Shown in pieces: positions 1 through 55,988 of a stretch of DNA of 56,635 nt (its first letter is position 1; every line of letters starts with the position of its first letter). The stretch lies in IMG/VR virus record IMGVR_UViG_3300034356_000821, positions 1 through 56,635 of that record, one strand, 5' to 3'. Made by a program: the position numbers and the translations under genes. This DNA is from a virus. The notes under the pieces were generated by a model. It was not told the DNA's origin, ran no database searches, and saw only the letters and a program-made list of their open reading frames with translations.

Positions 1-139
1 CTCTGACCTTCACCAATGCATCAGCAATCTTGTATGCATAGCGGCTCAGTGCCAGCGGGTCTTCCACTGTCACACCAGAGGCAAGCACACCCTTCATCAC
101 CTCAAGCGAGAAGGTGTCACGCAGGGTAGGCTCTGCCTT
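1..139. repeat. Left copy of 139-bp terminal direct repeat
   Basis: Positions 1-139 match 56497-56635 with three substitutions, all in the last 19 bases of the overlap. The repeat lies inside a gene that reads through the junction, so it most likely marks a circular or circularly permuted molecule cut at an arbitrary point rather than a packaged terminal repeat. Confidence 0.9.
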
Positions 140-220
140 CTCAGCGAATGAGGGACGGCCTCGGCTACGTGTTGGTTTATCAAGACTCATTGACGTTTCA
201 TGCAAATTGTTATCGCTCAT
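1..220 (-). CDS. Small conserved-looking protein, 3' end cut by window edge
   Basis: The ATG is at 220, two bases below the stop of the SleB-like gene (stop at 222-224). The reading frame is open to the window edge. If the ends are joined it continues through 56496-56489 and stops after 75 aa (ending VKVRDE). The N-terminal 25 residues are polar and Arg/Ser/Lys-rich; the rest looks helical (LEVMKGVLASGV, LALSRYAYKIADALVKVR). I do not recognise the family. The same gene reappears at the right edge with one amino-acid difference (Thr to Ser). Confidence 0.7.
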   Translation of the reverse strand, partial: MSDNNLHETSMSLDKPTRSRGRPSFAEKAEPTLRDTFSLEVMKGVLASGVTVEDPLALSRYAYKIADALVKVR

Positions 221-221
221 G

Positions 222-686
222 TTAGTTTTTCCTGTAGAAAATGTGATTGTTTATAACAGCAACCCTGTTCAAAGCCTTACGCCACACAGGGTTGACATGC
301 TTGGTGTGGTAGTGGGTAGCACCACCTGTAATGTCCTGCATAGCACCTGACATAGCCTGTGCCACAACAATGTACAACACAGATGTGTCACCTTCGATGG
401 GCTTGTTGCGTCCCTTCGCTGTGTTCGTCCAACTGAATTGCTTTCGAGCATACACTGTGTCGCAGATGGTGGTGCCTGTCTGTGCTGCCCTGTTCAGTGT
501 GACAGCAGCCACTGCTTGCATGCCAGCAACACCCTCACCACGGGCTTCATGGTAGGTGTTCTTTAACATACAGCACCACTCAGCAGCCACAGCAGGGGAT
601 GGTACAGGTTGATGCTCACACGATGCTGTCGAGAGCAGCAAAGCGCCACAGAACATAGCGATGGGGAAGTGTCTGGTGATGTTCAT
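222..686 (-). CDS. SleB-type cell wall hydrolase, predicted lipoprotein
   Basis: A 154-aa protein of the cell wall hydrolase SleB (Hydrolase_2) family, which cleaves peptidoglycan glycan strands. Seen: a short charged start, a hydrophobic stretch (residues 8-20) and a lipobox-like STASC with Cys23, then YHEARGE with the presumed catalytic Glu, AVAAVTLNR, and FSWT. The signal implies export and lipid anchoring, unusual for a phage endolysin and suggesting action from the periplasmic side. A good Shine-Dalgarno (AGGGG) precedes the ATG at 686. It lies in the early minus-strand arm, far from the plus-strand lysis cassette, which has its own M15 endolysin; a role in infection or superinfection control is therefore possible. 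Family assignment is confident, role is inference. Confidence 0.8.
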   Translation of the reverse strand: MNITRHFPIAMFCGALLLSTASCEHQPVPSPAVAAEWCCMLKNTYHEARGEGVAGMQAVAAVTLNRAAQTGTTICDTVYARKQFSWTNTAKGRNKPIEGDTSVLYIVVAQAMSGAMQDITGGATHYHTKHVNPVWRKALNRVAVINNHIFYRKN

Positions 687-687
687 G

Positions 688-1053
688 TCACACCCCTTGC
701 TCTTCAGCCATCAGCGCTGCCCATTTGAGCCACATGTAACGCATGCCTTGGACTTCGTAGTTGATCTTGTCGTACTCTTTAGGATCACCATACCTTGCAA
801 ACAGGGTTGAACTACCTGTGTTGCATCCCATGTTACACAGTCCATCAAGGACACGGCGGCGCATTGGTGCTACTTCACCATTGTAGTAAGCACCATATAG
901 ATGATAGAGGGCTTCATCAATGCTACAGCATGAGAACTTTTCTCTACGACCACCTTCACCGTATCGCTCATGAGCAACTAAGCATTTGTCAGCGGCAAGA
1001 TGTAACACATCTGCAACGGTGTGTTGTTTTTTCATAACTTTCGTTGCACTCAT
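688..1053 (-). CDS. Hypothetical phage protein, 121 aa
   Basis: No family recognised with certainty. The protein is soluble, with several Cys (SCCSIDEAL, CNMGCN) and an aromatic C-terminus (MRYMWLKWAALMAEEQGV). The stop at 688-690 lies one base from the start of the SleB-like gene, so the two are co-transcribed. ATG at 1053 has AGGA about ten bases upstream; an internal ATG (residue 7) is possible. Confidence 0.7.
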   Translation of the reverse strand: MSATKVMKKQHTVADVLHLAADKCLVAHERYGEGGRREKFSCCSIDEALYHLYGAYYNGEVAPMRRRVLDGLCNMGCNTGSSTLFARYGDPKEYDKINYEVQGMRYMWLKWAALMAEEQGV

Positions 1054-1088
1054 AATGGTGAATCCTCATGGTTGGATGGGTTGAATGG

Positions 1089-1104
1089 TGGACGTTTCCG
1101 TCCA
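1089..1104 (-). other. RNA hairpin with GAAA tetraloop
   Basis: On the minus strand TGGACG-GAAA-CGTCCA forms a perfect 6-bp stem with a GNRA-type loop in the short gap between the 99-aa gene and the 121-aa gene. It is not followed by a T-tract, so it is more likely an mRNA structure (processing or translation control) than a terminator. Confidence 0.5.
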
Positions 1105-1116
1105 TCGTCGAGCGGG

Positions 1117-1416
1117 TTAGGCCATGCTGGAAACGGCCATGCTGTCGAAGCCATATTCATACCTTTCATAGCTACGGATGCGGCTGTCTGTGTCACTACG
1201 CTTCTCAACAAACTTGACACGGGTATCTCGTTCGTTCAGTGCCATGCACAGGGTGGTCAGGTCACAGTCTTCTTCGAGGTAGGCATAGTCGCCACGTTGA
1301 TAGCTGTAGCGGCTTATCTTGTCGGCAATGCCGAGGTTGACCAGTACGTCTCGCTTGACCTTTCCCCATCCATGACCGGGGTCTGAGTACATTGTGATGG
1401 TGAATGACTTGCTCAT
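1117..1416 (-). CDS. Hypothetical phage protein, 99 aa
   Basis: Starts at 1416 and overlaps the stop of the upstream 61-aa gene. It has a GHGWGKV segment near residues 14-20 and an acidic middle (YLEEDCDL). This type of small protein with SDPGHGW near the N-terminus recurs in phage genomes, but I know of no function. Soluble, no membrane segment. Confidence 0.7.
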   Translation of the reverse strand: MSKSFTITMYSDPGHGWGKVKRDVLVNLGIADKISRYSYQRGDYAYLEEDCDLTTLCMALNERDTRVKFVEKRSDTDSRIRSYERYEYGFDSMAVSSMA

Positions 1417-1598
1417 GCTTCTTCCCTTGCAAATATTTGATCAACGCTGTGTGTCTCCCACTCATCAGAGGGAGTCCATTCGTGTTGCATACGGTCTTGT
1501 TCTACCCAAGCCAATGCTTCGGCTTCTTCTCTGCTATTGGCATCAACTGTGACGTTGACATAGCTAGACCGCACAATTTGTACGATGTATGTTTTCAT
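1413..1598 (-). CDS. DpnD/PcfM-like small protein, 61 aa
   Basis: The layout MKTYIVQIVRSSYVNVTVDA followed by NSREEAEALAW resembles the DpnD/PcfM-type fold: two beta strands and then an acidic helix containing an EEA repeat. Such proteins are common in phages and plasmids with unknown role. It overlaps both neighbours by four bases, typical translational coupling. Confidence 0.6.
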   Translation of the reverse strand: MKTYIVQIVRSSYVNVTVDANSREEAEALAWVEQDRMQHEWTPSDEWETHSVDQIFAREEA

Positions 1599-1861
1599 GC
1601 TGTCACCATTGCATTGTTGTTGATGGTCAAGCCTTCACATGTCACCGACACAATGGTGTCTTTGTTGACACAGCGATAGCCTGTGTTGAGGGTGTCATAA
1701 ACGATGATGTATTTGTCAAGATCGACAGTGGTTGTACCGTTCTTGAGGTATTTGGTAACACCAATGCGACCATTCAGTTTACGGACAGTGCCATCTTTCT
1801 TGATGAAGTTGACGGTGATGAACTTGCCCTTGCTTTGGGCGATGAAGTCTACGATTTTCAT
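1595..1861 (-). CDS. Small phage protein, beta-barrel-like, 88 aa
   Basis: The start chosen is the ATG at 1861, because AAGGAAAAC lies just upstream inside a hairpin shared with other early genes. The longer in-frame extension to 1936 lacks such a site. The sequence FITVNFIKKDGTVRKLNGR, a VTKYLKNG turn and DKYIIVYD suggest a small all-beta protein seen in many lytic phages; no known function. Confidence 0.75.
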   Translation of the reverse strand: MKIVDFIAQSKGKFITVNFIKKDGTVRKLNGRIGVTKYLKNGTTTVDLDKYIIVYDTLNTGYRCVNKDTIVSVTCEGLTINNNAMVTA

Positions 1862-1907
1862 TTGTTTTCCTTTGGAAGGTTGATACGATAGTGTATCGGT
1901 GATGGCC

Positions 1908-1936
1908 CTCATAAGACCATCACAGGACACTGTCAA
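1908..1936 (-). promoter_or_regulatory. Weak candidate promoter
   Basis: On the minus strand TTGACA (1931-1936) is followed 17 bp later by TATGAG (1908-1913), a poor -10 box. It would drive the 88-aa gene and those below it. The -35 overlaps the stop codon of the 53-aa gene, so chance occurrence is quite possible. Confidence 0.3.
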
Positions 1937-2094
1937 AATATCTTCGTTGTCTTGTCACCCTCAACCGACCACACACTGACCACATCAGGGTGCATGGTCA
2001 AGCTGACTCTGTAAATGAACATATACATTTCATCTTCGTTTGTGAATGTTTGTTGCCAAACATGATCGTTCCTAAACTTCCAGTGCAGTGTCAC
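1933..2094 (-). CDS. Small protein with GTG start, 53 aa
   Basis: This frame starts with GTG at 2094, overlapping the stop of the 56-aa gene (GTGA). GGAGGTGA, near-perfect for a Shine-Dalgarno, lies immediately upstream, although spacing to the GTG is short. The product is Trp- and Thr-rich (HWKFRND, VSVWSVEGD). No family recognised. Its position fills an otherwise empty gap in a tightly packed operon. Confidence 0.55.
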   Translation of the reverse strand: MTLHWKFRNDHVWQQTFTNEDEMYMFIYRVSLTMHPDVVSVWSVEGDKTTKIF

Positions 2095-2261
2095 AGTTCA
2101 CCTCCACCCATGTAAGCCAATGTAAAGTCGGCAATTTCATCCTCGCTCAACCACTTACCAGCTTGAATGTGATCAAGGGACTGTGAGTCAATTCCGAAAG
2201 TGTGCCGCAGAAAAGCAGCAGCAAAGAAGAAGTCTTTGTGCATCTTGCGGTATGTATTCAT
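2091..2261 (-). CDS. Hypothetical small protein, 56 aa
   Basis: ATG at 2261 was chosen because it follows the stop of the 130-aa gene by one base; the longer frame overlaps that gene almost entirely. The product has an aromatic helix (KDFFFAAAFLRHTFG) and an acidic segment (WLSEDEIADF). Unknown function. Confidence 0.6.
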   Translation of the reverse strand: MNTYRKMHKDFFFAAAFLRHTFGIDSQSLDHIQAGKWLSEDEIADFTLAYMGGGEL

Positions 2262-2262
2262 G

Positions 2263-2655
2263 TCACCACCAGCTATCATAGTACACAGCCTTGCCATAGT
2301 CCAGTGCCTCTCTTGCTTTAGCAATGAAGTCGGCAACGCTTTCGAGTTGTTCGGGGTACACCACTTGAGCACCAAAGAAGCTACCCTGAACAGGTTGCAT
2401 AGTGCCTGCTTCACGCTCAAGCCTGTCTAGGTCTTCGCTGGTCAATCGAACAGTGGTGCAGTTGAAGCTTGCTTTAGCACCACCTTTGATGCGGTATAGC
2501 TGTTCCATCCAGCCATGCAAAGCATTGAACTTGCGCCAGTAGAATAGCTCTGTCTTGTCGATCTCGTTGTCTGTGCCATAGTTGATGTCTAAGTCAACTA
2601 CGTTGTCGCCAGCATCCTTTGCTGACACGGTAAAAGCATACATGTCTAAGCCCAT
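2263..2655 (-). CDS. Phage protein of the MGLDMY type, 130 aa
   Basis: ATG at 2655 is preceded by the early-arm hairpin and AAGGAAC. The N-terminus MGLDMYAF and the later FYWRKFNALHGWMEQLY are characteristic of a widespread family of phage and bacterial hypothetical proteins that begin MGLDMY and carry a W-R-K-x-N segment. Biochemical function unknown. Ends in YYDSWW, one base before the next start. Confidence 0.75.
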   Translation of the reverse strand: MGLDMYAFTVSAKDAGDNVVDLDINYGTDNEIDKTELFYWRKFNALHGWMEQLYRIKGGAKASFNCTTVRLTSEDLDRLEREAGTMQPVQGSFFGAQVVYPEQLESVADFIAKAREALDYGKAVYYDSWW

Positions 2656-2666
2656 GATAGTTCCTT

Positions 2667-2843
2667 TCAGGAGAGTTGTTCTTGAATGATGTAAGTCGAT
2701 GCAGCCAGTGCATCTTTGATGGAGTCTACTGCCCAACCAGTGTATGTCTGCCCTTCGTTGTCAAAGAACAACTCATAGACCTGTGCTGTCTGGTCAAACT
2801 GTGCCCATATTTCGATGCCACTTTTCTTGGTGATCAATCGCAT
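2667..2843 (-). CDS. Small protein, 58 aa
   Basis: A frame from ATG 2843 (early-arm hairpin plus AAGGAAA upstream) to a TGA that lies inside the next hairpin. The product reads as a small beta-rich protein (WAQFDQTAQVYELFFDNEGQ) ending in an amphipathic helix. No family recognised. The matching hairpin at both ends is strong evidence that it is real. Confidence 0.65.
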   Translation of the reverse strand: MRLITKKSGIEIWAQFDQTAQVYELFFDNEGQTYTGWAVDSIKDALAASTYIIQEQLS

Positions 2844-2854
2844 GATGTTTCCTT

Positions 2855-3046
2855 TCAGGAAATGTTGATGATTGTGAAGCCCTCAATCTCGGCAAAGAGG
2901 TTGAGCAGCCTGCTGCTCAGTTGCATGTTGCCACCGTAGACGACGACACGTTCGATGTTACCGTCTGCATGCTTTATATCGGCATAAAAAGCATCACCGA
3001 TACCATTGTCACAGCCTATGGCTCTGATGGTTGTTGCAGGTGTCAT
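2855..3046 (-). CDS. Small protein, 63 aa
   Basis: The start at 3046 was selected from the hairpin and AAGGAAACAAC just upstream. The stop TGA is within the next hairpin. The product is a compact alpha/beta sequence (AFYADIKHADGNIERVVVYGG). Unknown function; no Cys clusters or membrane segment. Confidence 0.65.
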   Translation of the reverse strand: MTPATTIRAIGCDNGIGDAFYADIKHADGNIERVVVYGGNMQLSSRLLNLFAEIEGFTIINIS

Positions 3047-3065
3047 GTTGTTTCCTTTCAGGAAG

Positions 3066-3422
3066 TTAAAAAACTTTACGTGAAACGATACCGAAACCAA
3101 CAGGCTTCGGGGTTTCATATCGCACAGCATCACTCAAATGATACATGTACTTCGCATCTTTGATGTAGAAAATACTGTGCTTCGCAACAAGGTGTTGGTC
3201 ATACAGATCATCGAATGCTAAAGCATCGCTGACCAGTGAGCATCCAACGACATTGACTTGACCAATTGCAAAGGCTTTGCCTTGTCCTGTTCGAACAATC
3301 GCAACGGTCTTGCCAATGTAGGGATGTAAGCTTTTACTATTCCTTGTCTCGATGGTTTTGATACCATCGACAATGAGATCAGCAAAGGCAACATCGGTGT
3401 TTCGCACATTGATGCCTATCAT
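3066..3422 (-). CDS. ASCH-domain protein
   Basis: A 118-aa protein matching the ASCH (PUA-like) fold: ADLIVDGIKTIETRN near residues 14-28, then GKTVAIVRTGQG and an AIGQVNVVG strand. ASCH domains bind RNA or modified nucleosides, and some have RNase or deaminase activity. In phages their role is mostly unknown. The gene lies in the early arm among small genes; it starts at 3422, next to the stop of the 128-aa gene, and ends just before a hairpin module. RNA binding is family-level inference. Confidence 0.75.
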   Translation of the reverse strand: MIGINVRNTDVAFADLIVDGIKTIETRNSKSLHPYIGKTVAIVRTGQGKAFAIGQVNVVGCSLVSDALAFDDLYDQHLVAKHSIFYIKDAKYMYHLSDAVRYETPKPVGFGIVSRKVF

Positions 3423-3423
3423 A

Positions 3424-3810
3424 TTAGTTCCAGACGTTGATGTGAGAACGTTTGTTCTCGCTTACAGTCAGTGCCACAAGACGACCTGTCTTGCATGGAT
3501 GCTCACCGTACAAGTGAACGAAGGTGTCGTACTTGTATGGGTTGTAGGTGATGGGTGTGCCGACTGTGGTGACACGATCAATGGTGATCAGGTCAGTGCC
3601 TGTCATGTCCCAATGACCAACAACACCAGCATGAACATTCTTCTTACGTTCACGAAGGACACGCTGTCGCCCTGCCTCAGACACCTTGAAGGTGGCATCG
3701 AACAGCAACACATCGTCACGATGTGCCACGACACGGCCCTTGTTCTTACCCTCAAGCGCTTTGATGCTGAAGCATTTGCGGTGCAGATTAAAGTATACAT
3801 AAACTCGCAT
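3424..3810 (-). CDS. Hypothetical protein, 128 aa
   Basis: ATG at 3810 follows the hairpin/AAGGAAA module; the longer frame would overlap the 54-aa gene. The protein is basic (RQRVLRERKKN) and beta-rich near the N-terminus (MRVYVYFNLHRKCFSIKAL). I do not recognise a family. Arg/Lys clusters could suit nucleic-acid binding but this is not established. Confidence 0.65.
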   Translation of the reverse strand: MRVYVYFNLHRKCFSIKALEGKNKGRVVAHRDDVLLFDATFKVSEAGRQRVLRERKKNVHAGVVGHWDMTGTDLITIDRVTTVGTPITYNPYKYDTFVHLYGEHPCKTGRLVALTVSENKRSHINVWN

Positions 3811-3832
3811 GATGTTTCCTTTCAGGAATGAA

Positions 3833-3997
3833 TTAGGCAAAATCGCCCCGTTTGTCAAAACCAATTGATGCACAGAAAACATGTAATGTGTTTTCCCATT
3901 TTGTTTCTTCAATGCAAATAGACTTTGCTTCCCATGCAAAGCTTGCCTGAATGGTGTATGACGTATTGTCCCGCATTGTGACTGTGATTGTATGCAT
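3833..3997 (-). CDS. Small protein, 54 aa
   Basis: The frame runs from ATG 3997, preceded by the hairpin and AAGGAAACAAC, to TAA at 3833-3835, about 20 bases before the next start. The product is a mixed sequence (TITVTMRDNTSYTIQ...FAWEAKSI). No family recognised. Confidence 0.6.
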   Translation of the reverse strand: MHTITVTMRDNTSYTIQASFAWEAKSICIEETKWENTLHVFCASIGFDKRGDFA

Positions 3998-4015
3998 GTT
4001 GTTTCCTTTCAGGAA

Positions 4016-4204
4016 TTAATAATCTTCGTACCCATAATGGGGGGTTTGCAGTTGCTGACCGAAGCAATTGAAATATCGGTCACATTCACATACAATGTCA
4101 TAACCACCATCACTTGATTGCACCTCGATGATTTGGTGGCATGCACATGTCCACTTCCGAGTGTATGTGCCATCATCATGTTCAATGATTGTCATATCAG
4201 TCAT
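4016..4204 (-). CDS. Small putative zinc-binding protein, 62 aa
   Basis: Start at 4204, using the hairpin module. It has Cys pairs TCAC (residues 19-22) and VCECDRYFNC (38-47), plus His23, consistent with a small zinc-bound fold. Similar Cys-rich miniproteins are common in phage early regions. Ends in an aromatic tail (HYGYEDY). Metal binding is inferred from the Cys spacing only. Confidence 0.65.
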   Translation of the reverse strand: MTDMTIIEHDDGTYTRKWTCACHQIIEVQSSDGGYDIVCECDRYFNCFGQQLQTPHYGYEDY

Positions 4205-4480
4205 TTTGTTTCCTTTAGGAAGGCTTGATATAAACTCTGTAACCCTGTGCCACAAAGCTTATGAAAGCCACATCATATAGCACCGACCCCGATGCCATGA
4301 TGTGTCCCCTATGCACATTATCATCCTCATGTGCTATGAGCAGTGTAGAACGTTACGTATCTACAATTACGCTGGCCTATTTCAGGCTGCAACATACTTG
4401 CTACATATGTTGCATCCATACTGACACCACGTTACATTTTTAAAGATCAATTTGTTGGTGACGATGCACTGTTGGCCTAA
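4205..4480 (-). other. Leader region below promoter, one possible tiny gene
   Basis: About 275 bases between the promoter at 4481-4510 and the start at 4204. Apart from the 27-codon frame listed separately I see no convincing gene. The sequence is AT-richer than its neighbours and has a TTGCAACATA/ATATGTTGCA inverted repeat near 4388-4413, which could form an RNA stem. Confidence 0.4.
4215..4298 (-). CDS. Possible 27-aa small protein
   Basis: ATG at 4298 has AGGGGA seven bases upstream, and the TAA stop falls inside the hairpin module ahead of the 62-aa gene, just as in neighbouring genes. The product has a hydrophobic centre (VAFISFVAQ). It is short and unsupported by homology, so it may be only a leader peptide or chance. 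Confidence 0.35.
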   Translation of the reverse strand: MASGSVLYDVAFISFVAQGYRVYIKPS

Positions 4481-4510
4481 ATTATACAGGCTTTGCAAAA
4501 CCCCTGTCAA
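4481..4510 (-). promoter_or_regulatory. Consensus sigma70-like promoter with palindromic operators
   Basis: On the minus strand TTGACA (4505-4510), an 18-bp spacer and TATAAT (4481-4486) give exact consensus boxes. CTTTGCAAAG, a perfect palindrome, lies upstream of the -35 (4520-4529), and a near copy lies in the spacer (4491-4500). CCCT and AGGG flank the -35. These look like repressor or activator sites. It drives the genes from 4298/4204 leftward. Confidence 0.85.
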
Positions 4511-4530
4511 CTGTAGGGACTTTGCAAAGC

Positions 4531-4546
4531 CTCCCCCGAAGGGGAA
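4531..4546 (-). terminator. UUCG-loop hairpin after the GP88-like gene
   Basis: On the minus strand CTTCCCC-TTCG-GGGGGAG forms a stable stem just after the stop of the 251-aa gene and before the 4481-4510 promoter. It lacks a clean T-tract, so it may be a weak terminator or a 3'-end stabilising structure. Confidence 0.5.
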
Positions 4547-4554
4547 GCATTGTC

Positions 4555-5310
4555 TCATGCCGCTTGCAACATGAACACAGACTTAGGGGTGTCAACGACG
4601 AAGCCTGTCATATCAAGCTTTGCTTTGCCCTTGGCATACAGTGCCACAATGACGCCCTTATCCTCAAGGTGGCGAATGTCGCTGTTGTCACCACCGATGA
4701 CAGGCATGCCCTTGAACACAGCGGGTATCGATGCTTCGGTACGGAATACGACAGCGACTCGCATGCCATTGTCAATGGCCTTGTTGACATATGGCTGAAA
4801 GCCAACAACACCACTGTAGGAGAACGTCAGATCATAATTCAAAGGTAAACCTTTACGATTCACATCCTTGGTGTAGTCGTAGAATTGAACGTCAGGAAAT
4901 GCAGCAAATATGTTTACATATTCTGTGCCGTCAACATCAGTAAAACCTACAGTTTCCCAACGAATGTCTGACGTGCCATTCAAACGAACAAGCGGAATCA
5001 AGCTTTGCTTTGCAGCTTTTTTGACAAGCTGTCGAATGTTGACAACCAATTGCTGCATGAAAGTGGTTCGCTCAGTGAAAAACCACACTGTCTTATTGAT
5101 TCGACCCTGTGCCACTGTTGACATGGCACCACGCCCTGCACTGAACAAGCATGCAGTGCCACACTCTGCAATTTGTGCCATGCTGCATGTATTCCACTCC
5201 GTGGATTTGTAGGGTGCAAGATACATGATGCCAGTCAGAAAACCGAAGGTTTCGCCCTTCGATGTTTTCGCATCGGCATTGATTGACAAGAGAGATTTTG
5301 ACTTGAACAT
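4555..5310 (-). CDS. Gp88-like phage protein, 251 aa
   Basis: Resembles the phage gene product 88 family: KGETFGFLTGIMYLAPYKST near residues 18-37, then CSMAQIAECGTACLFSAGRG with three Cys that could form a metal site. The C-terminal half has alternating strands (VRVAVVFRTE-type) and a Gly-rich turn (VIGGDNSD). Members are common in phages of actinobacteria and proteobacteria; function unproven. Own promoter at 5359-5388 and own hairpin ribosome-binding site; ATG at 5310. A UUCG hairpin follows the stop. Confidence 0.7.
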   Translation of the reverse strand: MFKSKSLLSINADAKTSKGETFGFLTGIMYLAPYKSTEWNTCSMAQIAECGTACLFSAGRGAMSTVAQGRINKTVWFFTERTTFMQQLVVNIRQLVKKAAKQSLIPLVRLNGTSDIRWETVGFTDVDGTEYVNIFAAFPDVQFYDYTKDVNRKGLPLNYDLTFSYSGVVGFQPYVNKAIDNGMRVAVVFRTEASIPAVFKGMPVIGGDNSDIRHLEDKGVIVALYAKGKAKLDMTGFVVDTPKSVFMLQAA

Positions 5311-5358
5311 GATGTTTACCTTCGGTAAGAGACAGCGGGATTGCCGTCGATGCTTTCA

Positions 5359-5388
5359 ATTGTACAGACCTTCGAAAAGCCCTGTCAA
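5359..5388 (-). promoter_or_regulatory. Sigma70-like early promoter
   Basis: TTGACA (5383-5388), 18-bp spacer, TACAAT (5359-5364) on the minus strand. An inverted repeat CCCTG/CAGGG brackets the -35, and the spacer holds the palindrome TTCGAA. About 45 bp around it, including the downstream leader, is duplicated at the 5876-5905 promoter. It drives the Gp88-like gene. Confidence 0.8.
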
Positions 5389-5396
5389 ATGCAGGG

Positions 5397-5624
5397 TTAT
5401 TTGAAACGTTTTGCTGCAACGAAGTTGCCACGGCGGTATACAGTCGCTGCATCATAGCATGCTGCCCATTGTGCAGCTTCGCTGTAGGTGAAAGTGTAGT
5501 GACGTTTTTTGAAGCCTTGACCGATTGTCATAAAACCGAAGGTTTTCTTCAGTTGCAAAGCGATTTCAGCTTGCATGATGTATGAAGCAATAGCGAGTGA
5601 TGCAATGGATGTGAGCAATAACAT
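5397..5624 (-). CDS. Small membrane-associated or exported protein, 75 aa
   Basis: The N-terminus MLLLTSIASLAIASYIMQ is hydrophobic and could be a signal or a single membrane segment. The rest is basic and aromatic (FKKRHYTFTYSEAAQWAACY). ATG at 5624 follows a TTACT-GAA-AGTAA hairpin. It ends just above the 5359-5388 promoter. Function unknown. Confidence 0.6.
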   Translation of the reverse strand: MLLLTSIASLAIASYIMQAEIALQLKKTFGFMTIGQGFKKRHYTFTYSEAAQWAACYDAATVYRRGNFVAAKRFK

Positions 5625-5635
5625 GATGTTTACTT

Positions 5636-5827
5636 TCAGTAAGTGAAGCCGATGACGACGATTTTGTCTGCCTTGACGTAAACACAGCGGTTTATGTCTT
5701 CGACATCGACCAACTCAAACGACTTCGTCGTTCTGTCGTATGCACCTTTGATGTATACAGCTTTGCTGTCGCTTTTCCGTTTGACGTAGTCACCGGGTTT
5801 GACGTTTTTGATTGTGATGTTTTGCAT
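5636..5827 (-). CDS. Small phage protein, 63 aa, beta-barrel-like
   Basis: First gene of the early arm, directly below the 5876-5905 promoter and a hairpin ribosome-binding site. The sequence VKPGDYVKRKSDSKAVYIKG, FELVDVEDINRCVYVKAD and VVIGFTY suggests a small SH3/KOW-like barrel found in several phages. Its stop TGA lies inside the next hairpin. First position in the arm suggests immediate-early expression; function unknown. Confidence 0.7.
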   Translation of the reverse strand: MQNITIKNVKPGDYVKRKSDSKAVYIKGAYDRTTKSFELVDVEDINRCVYVKADKIVVIGFTY

Positions 5828-5875
5828 GATGTTTACCTTCGGTAGTACGACGACCCGATGCCGTCGATGCTTTCA

Positions 5876-5905
5876 ATTGTAGCGACCTTCGAATGGCCTT
5901 GTCAA
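5876..5905 (-). promoter_or_regulatory. Leftmost-directed early promoter
   Basis: TTGACA (5900-5905), 18-bp spacer, TACAAT (5876-5881) on the minus strand. The spacer contains TTCGAA, and a partly matched inverted repeat spans the -35. The leader down to the first start shares a long block with the 5359 promoter. It faces away from the late genes and opens the early unit. Confidence 0.8.
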
Positions 5906-5980
5906 ATGTAGGGCTATTCAACCACAATCGGTGAAGGGTCTTTCTCGTGTGTGCAGGCATTATGCAGCGGGTAAGGCTTC

Positions 5981-6065
5981 GTTGCCGATATCGTATACCG
6001 CCCCTTTTACTGACCCGTTAGTCATTAAAATCAACCGTTTTCAGGGTATCGAAGATATCGGCAAC
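5981..6065. repeat. Long inverted repeat, potential cruciform
   Basis: GTTGCCGATATC (5981-5992) and GATATCGGCAAC (6054-6065) are perfect 12-bp inverted arms separated by 61 bp. Partial pairing continues inward (GTATACC with GGTAT). The loop contains a further small hairpin, TGAC-CCGTTA-GTCA. Possible origin, protein-binding or attachment structure. Confidence 0.6.
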
Positions 6066-38746: not shown

Positions 38747-38919
38747 TTTGTAATCCGTGAAAGGTTGTCAAAGTATGCAGCGTTGAAGCCACGTTCCCAT
38801 TCCATACCAGCCAAGCTAGATGGATCGTAGCTGTTGGTCAGCCAACCACGACTGAAGGCATAGTAGCCCTTGTCAAACTGGATACGCAGCAAATGTTGTG
38901 GTCGTTTAAACTGTTGCAT
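38743..38919 (-). CDS. Small protein, possibly RMF-like, 58 aa
   Basis: ATG at 38919 has GGAG six bases upstream and is preferred to the ATG at 38931. The sequence GYYAFSRGWLTNSYDP then MEWERGFNAAYFDNL recalls ribosome-modulation-factor-like short proteins (Trp-x-x-G-F-x-x-A). This likeness is weak. The gene overlaps both neighbours. Confidence 0.5.
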   Translation of the reverse strand: MQQFKRPQHLLRIQFDKGYYAFSRGWLTNSYDPSSLAGMEWERGFNAAYFDNLSRITK

Positions 38920-47042: not shown

Positions 47043-49109
47043 TCATTGTATCACTAGCTTTGCAGCAGCGTCAATGTAGTATTGGTAGTCAACGTCTTTC
47101 CATGTGAAGTCATTGACATCATTACATGTCCACATACCGTAGCCTTCACCAATCGATATGCGTCTAGGTTCTGCTTCTTCCTTGATTGGTGGCATCACCT
47201 TAACCAACTCACCACCAGCACTGCATGCGTAGTAGCGACACGTATTCTGTTGCTTAATATGTACATTGTCAACAATGAGAAACAGACCACTGCTACGTGG
47301 CACCTTCACTCTAAGCATAAAGTCATACTTGTTCTTGTGACCCTTGATGTATGTGTCAAGAGAGATGCCATGAAGCATTGCAGCTTCAGCAGCCTTTGGT
47401 ATCACCAACCCACCCTGATCTTGATGCCAGCCTAAGTCTTCATACTGGTACGCACCCTTACGCTTCACCTTACCGTCTGTATATACAGCGATGTAGTTGT
47501 TCACGTCACGAATAATCATCTTGGAATACTCAGCATACTCAAGCTGCAAACCAACTTGCTTCTGCCATGCGTCACAAACTCTGTCGTACTGGTCGCGCTT
47601 ACTACGTGGCAGCTTCACAGTGATACCGTCTGTATTAACCTGCACAATGGACAAACCTTCAATGTCCATTAGCTTCTCAGCCAACAGGCACAGGCTAAGC
47701 TGACCATTAATGGTGATCGCCATCGTGTACTGAGGGTCGTAGAAGGGGCTGTACTTGTTGTTGCTATCACCGTATACACCGTTCAACGCAAGCTTCAGCA
47801 TGGCGTTCTCAGCGCTGCCCTTGGGGTAGCTCTTACGCTGCTCGTACACGTCTTGATAGATGTCACAGAACTTCTCAGACAAATGCTCAGGATAGATACG
47901 GTTGGCAATGGCAATGTTGGGATACATGGATGCCACGTCAGCATCAACAATCATGCGCGTGTCGCTGTCACTGACGATGGTGCTCTCAACAGACCCGTGA
48001 ATACCACCAGTGCCGAAGTCGAAACGAAAGCCACCGATTGTCACGTTCAAGTTGGTAGCAACTTTCCAGTTCTTCCAATAGCTGTACTGCTTCTCACCCT
48101 TCTTCTTAGCTTTCAGTTCCTCTTCAGACACCCACCCCATAGGATGCAATGCTTTGAAGCCAGCAATAACATCATCGCTTGGTTTGTTGAACCACTTCTG
48201 ACGCTTCGTCACCATCTCAGCATAGGCAGCTAAGTCACCAAGGTCGTCCTCTTCAATGTCAGACAATGCACCTTTTGTTTCTGTCAAAGACTGTGCAGCA
48301 AACCACTCCAGCACTAGCTGAAACTCAGGACGCAGAAAGTCGTAGTAGTTGAACAGACAATCTTTGATGTGAATAACTTCACGCCTAGTCTGATTAATGT
48401 GACGCTCACCCTTCTTACCAATACGATAGCAACTACCGGGCATGTTCTCTTCAAGCTTCATGATGAAGTAGTCTTTGCCGATCTTTGTATCGTTGTGGTT
48501 GAGAAAGTTGCGATTGTATTTAACAGACAACTCTTCACGAAACGTTATCTGTGATAAGCATTCTTTGTAGAACAACAACGTCATCTTCACATCATGCATG
48601 TTGTATTTTAACAACACATCTATCTGGTCATCGGTTAGGTCACTGTGTGGGTCGTATGGCAGGTCAACAATGCTGTCAGCTTTCATGTTGAACTCAAGCG
48701 CCTTCAACGATGTAGCCCTTGCAGGATTGTCGAAGTGCATGATTTTGTACAGGTCAATCTGCTGCACATACTGTGACTTGTCATGGATGATGTGACCAAA
48801 CCTGTCATCGCTACCGATGATGGACTGTGCCTTCTTGTACACCCGTGTAGCCACAGCCTTACCAGATACAGTGAGGGCTTTGTCAGATACAGAGATGAGG
48901 TCATGCAACACAGGGTAGTCAAAGCCTATGTTGTTGTACCCCACCATCCTGTGCTTCTTACGCTTGAGTTCCCCGAGGAAACTAAAAAGTTGCTCAGCTT
49001 CATTCTTTCGCTGTGAACATTCAAACGCTACAGCATGCGACTCATCAACGCTAATCGCTGAGAACGTGAACGCTGTCTTGTATGTCTCTATGTCCCATAC
49101 GTAGTCCAT
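47043..49109 (-). CDS. DNA polymerase, family B
   Basis: The replicative polymerase, with ATG 49109 chosen because AAGGAAAAG precedes it (about 688 aa). Seen: exonuclease VWDIETYK with Asp6 and Glu8, GYNNIGFDYPVL, KYNMHDVKMT (third exo site); polymerase motif A DADVASMYPN, motif B KLALNGVYGDSNNK, and motif C VNTDGITV. It lacks a terminal-protein-type region, so normal primed synthesis by the helicase-primase is expected. Its 3' end contains the SSB promoter. Confidence 0.92.
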   Translation of the reverse strand: MDYVWDIETYKTAFTFSAISVDESHAVAFECSQRKNEAEQLFSFLGELKRKKHRMVGYNNIGFDYPVLHDLISVSDKALTVSGKAVATRVYKKAQSIIGSDDRFGHIIHDKSQYVQQIDLYKIMHFDNPARATSLKALEFNMKADSIVDLPYDPHSDLTDDQIDVLLKYNMHDVKMTLLFYKECLSQITFREELSVKYNRNFLNHNDTKIGKDYFIMKLEENMPGSCYRIGKKGERHINQTRREVIHIKDCLFNYYDFLRPEFQLVLEWFAAQSLTETKGALSDIEEDDLGDLAAYAEMVTKRQKWFNKPSDDVIAGFKALHPMGWVSEEELKAKKKGEKQYSYWKNWKVATNLNVTIGGFRFDFGTGGIHGSVESTIVSDSDTRMIVDADVASMYPNIAIANRIYPEHLSEKFCDIYQDVYEQRKSYPKGSAENAMLKLALNGVYGDSNNKYSPFYDPQYTMAITINGQLSLCLLAEKLMDIEGLSIVQVNTDGITVKLPRSKRDQYDRVCDAWQKQVGLQLEYAEYSKMIIRDVNNYIAVYTDGKVKRKGAYQYEDLGWHQDQGGLVIPKAAEAAMLHGISLDTYIKGHKNKYDFMLRVKVPRSSGLFLIVDNVHIKQQNTCRYYACSAGGELVKVMPPIKEEAEPRRISIGEGYGMWTCNDVNDFTWKDVDYQYYIDAAAKLVIQ
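47045..47074 (-). promoter_or_regulatory. Promoter for the SSB-like gene
   Basis: TTGACG (47069-47074), 18-bp spacer, TACAAT (47045-47050) on the minus strand, in the 3' end of the polymerase gene. Same box spacing as the early-arm promoters, with one change in the -35. Confidence 0.65.
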
Positions 49110-55148: not shown

Positions 55149-55988
55149 TTACGCTGTAACGTATTCGTCAGCAATGTTCCACAGTTCTGTGTTGATACGC
55201 ACAGCTTCCTTGATGGAGTTGACAGGTCGAGCCTTACGCATCACACCTTGAGGATGCACATCAGTGATGGACCTGATCAATGCATTGCCACGAACTACAC
55301 CTTCTTGGATGCGGTTGAACACAGTCCAAGCATCGTAGCCTCTGTCACCATCACGGCGTACACTCATCACATCCTTGACCGTCTGTGCCACAGCATAGGC
55401 ACCCTTGGCTTGACCAGTGTAGTCGTCCCAACGGGTAGCAACACCAGCAATAGCCATGTCATGTACATCACCAGTGGACAGTGACACACCACGCATCTTG
55501 TCAATGCGGCCCATCAAGGATGGCAGGGTAGCCACTGTGTTACGCAGCATCTCTTCAAAGCCGTTCAATGCTTTGCTGTGATAGATGCGAGACTGAAAGC
55601 CATCACCAGCCACGATGCCGTTGGAGCAGATGAAACGGAATGCACCAGCGAAGAGCTTCACACTACCACTACCATCATGAGAGTTGTACAAGATGATTTC
55701 AGGACGAATGTCATCAGCGGTGGCAAGGTCAACCACCTTGCTGAATGCCAACATGTGAGCAGCATGTAACGGGCTGGCCTTACGGCTACGTTTCTGTGCA
55801 GCCTGTGTCGGTACATAACCATAGTCTGCCATGATGGGCAGCACATCGCTTGTGTTGAGGGAGATGTAACGGTCGGTCAAGCGGTCTGCCTTGGTGACGC
55901 TGAATGCAGCAGGAGCACGTTGATGGATGGCTTCGATACTCAAGGCTGAGTTGTCGGCATTACGGGAGAAGATGACATGCTTAGACAT
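55149..55988 (-). CDS. DUF932-like phage/plasmid protein
   Basis: Start at 55988 chosen because AAGGAAACAATC precedes it. 279 aa with PLHAAHMLAFSKVVDLATAD, PEIILYNSHDGSGSVKLFAG, FRFICSNGIVAG, and a C-terminal region (NALIRSITDVHPQGV) that match the DUF932 family of phages and plasmids. Function not known; some are expressed early. It is the first gene below the 56037-56066 promoter and opens the main replication operon. Confidence 0.82.
   Translation of the reverse strand: MSKHVIFSRNADNSALSIEAIHQRAPAAFSVTKADRLTDRYISLNTSDVLPIMADYGYVPTQAAQKRSRKASPLHAAHMLAFSKVVDLATADDIRPEIILYNSHDGSGSVKLFAGAFRFICSNGIVAGDGFQSRIYHSKALNGFEEMLRNTVATLPSLMGRIDKMRGVSLSTGDVHDMAIAGVATRWDDYTGQAKGAYAVAQTVKDVMSVRRDGDRGYDAWTVFNRIQEGVVRGNALIRSITDVHPQGVMRKARPVNSIKEAVRINTELWNIADEYVTA

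What the first reader, a model, noticed from the sequence alone, without database searches (positions are those of the whole stretch)
1867..5844. Ten early genes share a covarying hairpin that holds the ribosome-binding site
Upstream of ten minus-strand starts a small hairpin places the Shine-Dalgarno in its 3' arm. Forms differ (TTCCT/AGGAA, TTACC/GGTAA, TTACT/AGTAA) yet pairing is kept, and the loop is mostly GAA. In several copies the loop TGA is the stop of the upstream gene. This couples termination, structure and re-initiation in one repeated unit. It is confined to the early arm and absent from late genes. A regulatory protein or temperature could open all of them together.
Basis: partly seen in the sequence, partly recalled or inferred. 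Interest (0 to 1): 0.65.

Follow-up and report, generated by a model that had tools for sequence, protein, structure and literature searches.

The report
Early-gene ribosome-site hairpin in aquatic phages
A family of uncultured aquatic bacteriophages puts the ribosome-binding site of its early genes inside the same tiny RNA hairpin, and the two arms of the hairpin change together in evolution, which points to a shared but still unproven way of controlling when or how well those genes are translated.

Summary
Ten minus-strand starts in window 1861-5827 carry a 4-6 bp hairpin whose 3' arm holds the Shine-Dalgarno (SD) position; none of the other SD starts in the phage does. The same unit occurs in about 90 further IMG/VR stretches. 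The 18 of 21 records in which it was found share the window's portal protein at 69-100% identity, and the hairpins sit on one strand in a segment of a few kb. Pairing is conserved rather than one sequence: TTCCT/AGGAA, TTACC/GGTAA, TTTCC/GGAAA, TTACT/AGTAA and rarer forms exchange at orthologous genes (at least 6, 8 and 4 changes on three gene trees). The loop is GAA in 229 of 248 triloops. A loop TGA ends the upstream gene in about a third of GAA-looped copies (3 of 10 in the window). 301 of 303 cores precede a start codon. The unit is absent from the nearest annotated relatives.

Best reading: a start-associated translation module, like mycobacteriophage SAS elements but with a different sequence. 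It is too weak (-1.3 to -3.8 kcal/mol at 37 C) to lock translation alone. Ribosome opening plus recognition by an unknown factor is inferred, not shown. Promoter-proximal copies lie in a leader with a near-consensus sigma-70 promoter and a second covarying hairpin.

The parts
5834..5844 (-). SD hairpin 1 of 10, TACC-GAA-GGTA, for 63-aa gene (ATG 5827); outer pair broken (C/A)
   Evidence: orthologues
5630..5642 (-). SD hairpin 2, TTACT-GAA-AGTAA, for 75-aa gene (ATG 5624); loop TGA (5636-5638) is the stop of the 63-aa gene; no recognisable SD
5316..5328 (-). SD hairpin 3, TTACC-GAA-GGTAA, for 251-aa PHROG 1617 gene (ATG 5310)
4210..4221 (-). SD hairpin 4, TTCCT-AA-AGGAA (TTCC-TAAA-GGAA), for 62-aa gene (ATG 4204)
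4003..4015 (-). SD hairpin 5, TTCCT-GAA-AGGAA, for 54-aa gene (ATG 3997)
3816..3828 (-). SD hairpin 6, TTCCT-GAA-AGGAA, for 128-aa L5 gp82-family gene (ATG 3810)
3052..3064 (-). SD hairpin 7, TTCCT-GAA-AGGAA, for 63-aa gene (ATG 3046)
2848..2862 (-). SD hairpin 8, TTTCCT-GAA-AGGAAA, for 58-aa gene (ATG 2843); loop TGA is the upstream stop (2855-2857)
2662..2672 (-). SD hairpin 9, TCCT-GAA-AGGA, for 130-aa gene (ATG 2655); loop TGA is the upstream stop (2667-2669)
1867..1877 (-). SD hairpin 10, TTCC-AAA-GGAA, for 88-aa WYL_2 gene (ATG 1861)
5876..5905 (-). sigma-70-like promoter TTGACA-18-TACAAT (11/12) of the 5827 operon, with CCC..GG inverted repeat over the -35
5359..5388 (-). sigma-70-like promoter TTGACA-18-TACAAT (11/12) of the 5310 gene, with CCCTG..CAGGG inverted repeat over the -35
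4481..4510 (-). sigma-70-like promoter TTGACA-18-TATAAT (12/12) upstream of the 4204 operon
5849..5865 (-). second leader hairpin at the predicted 5' end, GACGGC-ATCGG-GTCGTC (approximate span)
5331..5348 (-). second leader hairpin at the predicted 5' end, GACGGC-AATCCC-GCTGTC (approximate span)

Best explanation
The repeated hairpin is a translation-initiation module ('structured ribosome-binding site') that this phage group places before most independently initiated genes of its early arm. Shown by sequence: the 3' arm plus the loop As hold the SD position; the stem is kept by paired changes on both arms; the loop is a GNA-type triloop; the unit nearly always precedes a start codon; it belongs to an early-gene set. 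Inferred: as RNA, the weak stem lowers free 30S access to the SD and is opened by ribosomes, either ones terminating at the stop in the loop (about a third of GAA-looped copies) or initiating ones, and the constant shape (C-G core, GAA loop, AACA flank) also lets a still unknown phage or host factor recognise all early messages together, most likely to damp or end early translation. The first half (a structure-dependent element acting on translation initiation) is well supported; the trans-acting half is a proposal. The confidence given is for the first half; I put the trans-acting half at about 0.35.
For: Covariation: GGTAA right arms pair with TTACC in 29 of 35 cases and GGAAA with TTTCC in 6 of 10; fully paired non-AGGAA stems 41 against 7.9 after redealing left arms, maximum 16. 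In 65 leaders, 97.8% of cells pair against 83.0% shuffled, two pairs each have 32 double-changed sequences, and slid controls lose the signal. On gene trees stem form changes at least 6, 8 and 4 times, each form giving full pairing. RNA level: 301 of 303 cores are followed by a start codon within 14 nt. Loop GAA in 229 of 248 triloops. Set membership: only the early arm; the 279-aa gene keeps the promoter and leader hairpin but has no SD hairpin in the window and the relatives seen. Ribosome contact: the loop TGA is the upstream stop far above the other frames. The SD-less AGTAA form still pairs, in at least 3 of 11 copies without the loop stop, so hiding an SD is not the whole function. Folding model: SD arm unpaired 0.13 native against 0.32 with left arm scrambled, no effect on AUG.
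Against: No expression, probing or mutant data. Stem energies of -1.3 to -3.8 kcal/mol at 37 C in context (about -3 to -6 at 20 C) are far from the roughly -8.7 kcal/mol at which the MS2 fit in PMC9894550 gives half repression, so passive repression is unlikely to be strong. No trans-acting factor was found: the one early protein present in all 12 relatives (L5 gp82 family) also occurs in phages without the hairpin and its predicted fold matches nothing solved. Loci were found by searching for paired patterns, so overall frequencies are biased; the tests cited leave the left arm free or compare orthologues. Form changes on the trees may partly reflect leader exchange by recombination rather than point changes. 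In a 33-nt context the window's 5827 and 5624 leaders do not have the SD hairpin as predicted minimum-energy fold.
Confidence: 0.66

Rival explanations
1. Trans-acting operator: a phage or host RNA-binding protein or ribonuclease recognises the GAA-capped hairpin and shuts down (or stabilises) all early messages together, as RegA, RegB or MS2 coat protein do for their targets.
For: Loop and CC/GG core far more constant than the outer pairs; stem too weak to act alone; defined gene set; pairing kept even without an SD.
Against: No factor identified; loop AA and the A-rich flank are also explained by SD extension and favourable spacing; no fold match for the one universal early protein.
Confidence: 0.35
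2. Cis-only tuning and coupling: the hairpin sets a moderate initiation rate and insulates the SD from other pairings; where the stop lies in the loop, the terminating ribosome melts the stem and reinitiates.
For: Loop stop enriched; predicted SD accessibility falls with the left arm intact while AUG is unaffected; ribosome unfolding and reinitiation are established models of coupling (PMC12548453).
Against: Most copies have no loop stop; does not explain restriction to the early arm or the nearly fixed loop; predicted energy too small for strong control.
Confidence: 0.4
3. Recombination linker: the short repeated unit is a homology boundary that lets small early genes be shuffled as cassettes, and repetition reflects spread rather than control.
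For: Early arm gene content and order vary greatly between relatives; the unit lies at gene boundaries; promoter early stem-loop cassettes are reported to do this in T4-like phages (as cited in PMC4503421).
Against: Pure homology would not keep pairing through different sequences at orthologous genes; 13-bp identity is short for recombination; strict position before start codons.
Confidence: 0.12
4. RNA thermometer: stems melt with temperature and control early translation.
For: Computed stability roughly doubles between 37 and 10 C; the contigs are from environmental, largely aquatic samples (inferred).
Against: Strictly paired stems without the mismatches or U-runs of known thermometers; already weak at 20 C; no reason for early genes only.
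Confidence: 0.06
5. Chance or plain SD conservation: a conserved purine SD and an unrelated pyrimidine tract look like a hairpin.
For: TTCCT-GAA-AGGAA is by far the commonest form and its sequence conservation alone could mimic pairing.
Against: Left-arm-free tests, orthologue comparisons and tree changes; among newly fetched loci with the same right half GAAGGTAAACANCATG none had the full TTACC arm.
Confidence: 0.02

Closest known systems
Start-Associated Sequences (SAS) and extended SAS of cluster K mycobacteriophages (PMC3203893; PMC11373665)
   Same: Short repeated unit a few bases before the start codons of 13-19 genes, conservation beyond the SD, gene-set membership largely conserved in relatives, and a subset preceded by an inverted repeat that contains a sigma-70-type promoter; function unknown there too.
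   Different: The SAS consensus GGGATAGGAGCCC is absent here beyond chance; SAS is described as one asymmetric sequence, not as a covarying hairpin; hosts and phages are unrelated; a stop codon in the loop is not described.
Promoter early stem-loops (PeSLs) of T4-like phages (Arbiol 2010; Comeau 2014; cited in PMC4503421)
   Same: Repeated cassettes of early promoter plus stem-loop in a fast-changing early region.
   Different: The PeSL papers could not be read here; in this phage the SD hairpin itself is repeated also at internal genes without promoters.
T4 RegA and RegB control of early messages (PMC3014915)
   Same: Act on translation-initiation regions of many early genes at once.
   Different: RegA sites are unstructured and A+U rich; RegB cuts GGAG/U that must be unpaired; here the site is a hairpin and lacks GGAG/U in its main forms.
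MS2 replicase operator hairpin and coat-gene hairpin
   Same: Hairpin at an initiation site, controlled by protein binding or ribosome passage.
   Different: Single sites in an RNA phage; here ten weak copies in a DNA phage and no known binder.
Translational coupling by ribosome unfolding or reinitiation (PMC12548453)
   Same: Stop codon close to, and structure around, the next start.
   Different: Only about a third of GAA-looped copies carry the upstream stop in the loop.

Membership tests
Mycobacteriophage SAS/ESAS | Short conserved element 3-9 nt before start codons of many genes | tested here: met
Mycobacteriophage SAS/ESAS | Consensus GGGATAGGAGCCC | tested here: not met
   One match with 2 mismatches, on the + strand at 38857, 5.7 expected by chance at up to 3 mismatches
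Mycobacteriophage SAS/ESAS | Subset preceded by inverted repeat containing a sigma-70-type promoter | tested here: met
   CCY..TTGACA-RGG in 51 of 75 early-type leaders; window promoters
T4 RegA operator | Unstructured A+U-rich site overlapping or next to AUG | tested here: not met
   Conserved pairing; description of RegA sites
T4 RegB site | GGAG or GGAU, GGA unpaired | tested here: not met
   Main arms are AGGAA, GGTAA, GGAAA, AGTAA, paired; RegB requirement
CsrA/RsmA site | ANGGA with GGA in a hairpin loop | tested here: not met
   GG lies in the stem; GGTAA and AGTAA forms have no GGA; the family definition is from general knowledge
fourU-type RNA thermometer | Four U opposite the SD, imperfect stem | tested here: not met
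   Left arm is UUCCU, UUACC, UUUCC or UUACT, perfectly paired; definition from general knowledge
Any Rfam family | Covariance-model match | tested here: not met
   Only a tRNA at gathering threshold; nothing at the hairpins at E up to 5; very short hairpins are poorly covered by such models
Translational coupling pair | Downstream translation depends on upstream translation | not testable with these tools
   Only stop position tested
T4-type PeSL | Composite terminator-promoter cassette that mediates gene shuffling | tested here: inconclusive
   Promoter and inverted repeat present; terminator scan found nothing at these promoters in the window; shuffling at the units not tested

The most novel reading that the evidence does not exclude
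A phage-wide translational regulon: the early messages carry a common hairpin operator at the ribosome-binding site which a dedicated phage or host factor binds or cuts to switch early translation off (or on), a structured DNA-phage counterpart of the T4 RegA/RegB systems and possibly the key to what SAS-type elements do.
Probability: 0.33. Interest if true: 0.78.

Novelty: new variant of a known kind. Interest (0 to 1): 0.58.

Why it matters
Start-associated repeats were described in mycobacteriophages in 2011 and their function is still open. Here an unrelated, widespread group of aquatic phages has a similar unit in which the evolutionary record shows that base pairing is what is kept. That makes the question directly testable with simple arm-swap reporters, and it gives a handle (a constant bait of 13-25 nt) to look for a factor that would control a whole set of early phage genes at translation.

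Tried and rejected
Near-DNA search of phage records: only distant relatives; the three nearest by early genes (MW202701, DC31, HMO-2011) lack the hairpin in the stretches read. Short-motif search of annotated phages: weak single matches in unrelated phages. Genome-collection scan: nine isolated single matches, none with proteins related to the window, so no prophage or host clue. Rfam: nothing. Candidate factor by gene content: only the L5 gp82-family gene, among early-arm genes, was present in all 12 relatives and absent from MW202701, but HMO-2011 and phage DC31 have it without hairpins; a confident model (pLDDT 92) matched no solved fold. CsrA, RegB, RegA and fourU readings rejected on sequence grounds. 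The PeSL papers were not held.
Full report
What is there. The window is a 56.6-kb virus record. By its proteins it is a podovirus-type phage: terminase, head-tail adaptor/portal, ribonucleotide reductase, DNA polymerase, primase/helicase, integrase. Its nearest annotated record is Caudoviricetes ctYwJ313, MW202701, and HMO-2011 carries homologues of two of its early genes. Bases 1-6000 hold a run of short minus-strand genes, mostly without informative family matches. Ten of their starts carry a hairpin at the SD position; coordinates are in the parts list. Four stem forms occur in the window, the loop is GAA in eight, and three copies have the upstream stop as loop TGA. Seven other starts in the same arm lack the hairpin; all but one (ATG 1053) overlap or abut the upstream gene, so the hairpin marks starts that are initiated on their own (read).

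Is it more than chance? The right half GAAAGGAAACA (1 mismatch allowed) occurs 11 times against 1.3 expected. The full 21-mer was found in 71 stretches of IMG/VR, the TTACC form in 18 and the TTACT form in 8. In 21 source records the units lie mostly on one strand within a few kb, and the reversed control pattern gives 0 or 1. Eighteen of the 21 records have the window's portal protein at 69-100% identity; G002 is essentially the same phage. Only 12 have its DNA polymerase, so the replication module is exchanged while the hairpins stay. A whole-genome scan of 13 phages puts nearly all SD hairpins in the early arm.

Covariation. Because loci were found through paired patterns, I used tests that leave the left arm free. 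Over 422 distinct NNN-NNNAA-ACANN-start sites, GGTAA right arms have TTACC in 29 of 35 and GGAAA have TTTCC in 6 of 10, a form never searched for. Outside the commonest right arm, 41 sites pair fully against 7.9 (maximum 16) when left arms are redealt. In the first 72 sequences (71 loci chosen only by the TTCCT form, and the window), 9 of 12 GGTAA arms pair fully with TTACC. Among newly fetched loci with the same right half, no site had the full TTACC arm. For genes whose orthologues were collected regardless of hairpins, 43 of 44, 46 of 62, 25 of 26 and 23 of 23 carry stems of 5 bp or more, against about 1 in shuffled sequence. In 65 leaders 97.8% of cells pair; the third and the closing pair each switch on both sides in 32 sequences; slid controls fail. 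On protein trees stem form changes at least 6, 8 and 4 times. Some changes may come with recombined leaders, but pairing is kept each time a hairpin is present.

Position and loop. 301 of 303 hairpin cores are followed by a start codon within 14 nt, so the function is at the RNA start site. Triloops are GAA in 229 of 248; GTA and AAA are the main exceptions. The AA belongs to the SD (AAGG); the G is not needed for the SD or, in the TTACC form, for a stop, which suggests a GNA-type loop or a reader of the loop (inference).

Stop codon. The frame ending at the loop TGA is open for 60 codons or more in 99 of 258 copies, against 22 and 22 for the other frames. By the longest-frame method it is 53 of 150. 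This is real but a minority arrangement. The TTACT/AGTAA form has no recognisable SD. In the window it sits at a loop stop, yet at least 3 of 11 distinct copies do not.

The leader. Promoter-proximal units lie in a stereotyped leader: TTGACA-17/18-TATAAT at 10-12 of 12 matches, often with CCY..RGG around the -35 (51 of 75), then a second stem starting mostly 6-11 nt after the -10, that is near the expected 5' end, then the SD hairpin. The second stem also covaries: 61% have a stem score of 5 or more against 10% shuffled, and the covariation score is 0.321 against 0.189. The 279-aa gene at 55149-55988 has such a promoter and second stem but no SD hairpin in the window and the relatives seen, so the two stems are separate devices.

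Mechanism. Stability in a 33-nt context is -1.3 to -3.8 kcal/mol at 37 C and -3.0 to -6.0 at 20 C. With the MS2 coat-hairpin fit given in PMC9894550 (intercept -13.8, slope 1.59), half repression needs about -8.7 kcal/mol. That fit is for 42 C and a strong site, so it is a guide only. Folding predicts that the left arm lowers SD accessibility from 0.32 to 0.13 without touching the AUG. The stem is therefore selected but probably too weak for a passive lock. I infer opening by ribosomes, with a possible additional reader. No reader was found: the L5 gp82-family protein is universal in the hairpin phages tested but not specific, and its model has no known fold.

Known relatives. The best match in kind is SAS/ESAS of cluster K mycobacteriophages: repeats before starts, a subset with a promoter-bearing inverted repeat, function unknown. 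The SAS sequence itself is absent here. RegA, RegB, CsrA and fourU definitions are not met. The annotated relatives MW202701, DC31 and HMO-2011 lack the unit in the stretches read.

Verdict. Observation confirmed; interpretation partly supported; a new variant of the start-associated element, with conserved pairing as the new fact.

Noticed in passing
window 5849-5865 and 5331-5348 (minus), and leaders in many relatives: A second covarying stem-loop near the predicted 5' end of early transcripts, independent of the SD hairpin; possibly an mRNA 5' stabiliser.
   Followed up: partly
window 5905-5876, 5388-5359, 4510-4481 (minus) and relatives: Early promoters at 11-12 of 12 consensus matches whose -35 lies inside a CCC..GGG inverted repeat, resembling composite promoter-terminator cassettes.
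   Followed up: partly
window 3424-3810 (minus): L5 gp82-family gene present in all 12 relatives whose sequence was fetched; confident model with no match among solved folds.
   Followed up: partly
L008, L028, L047, L057, L062, L065, L070-L073, L076 upstream of the 75-aa gene homologue: Instead of the small SD hairpin, a long near-perfect inverted repeat (about 30-nt arms, GTCTTTCATTTAAC...GTTAAATGAAAGAC) lies directly before the SD.
   Followed up: no
L108:2364-2414 and L058:1071-1121: Early-type promoter followed by a short leader with a CCGAGTCGG palindrome and no SD hairpin; possibly a small RNA.
   Followed up: no
L101 (Alteraurantiacibacter aquimixticola), minus strand: The exact 21-mer TTCCTGAAAGGAAACANCATG precedes a cold-shock-protein-like ORF (MAKTGTVKFFNTDKGYGFIQP); single case.
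   Followed up: no
G006, G008, G009, G010, G011, G013-G016 against window 47043-49109: The window's DNA polymerase is missing from about half of the relatives that share its portal protein: replication module exchange.
   Followed up: no
window 3066-3422 and 1595-1861 (minus): ASCH-domain and WYL_2 (Sm-like) proteins in the early arm, both folds with possible RNA contacts.
   Followed up: no
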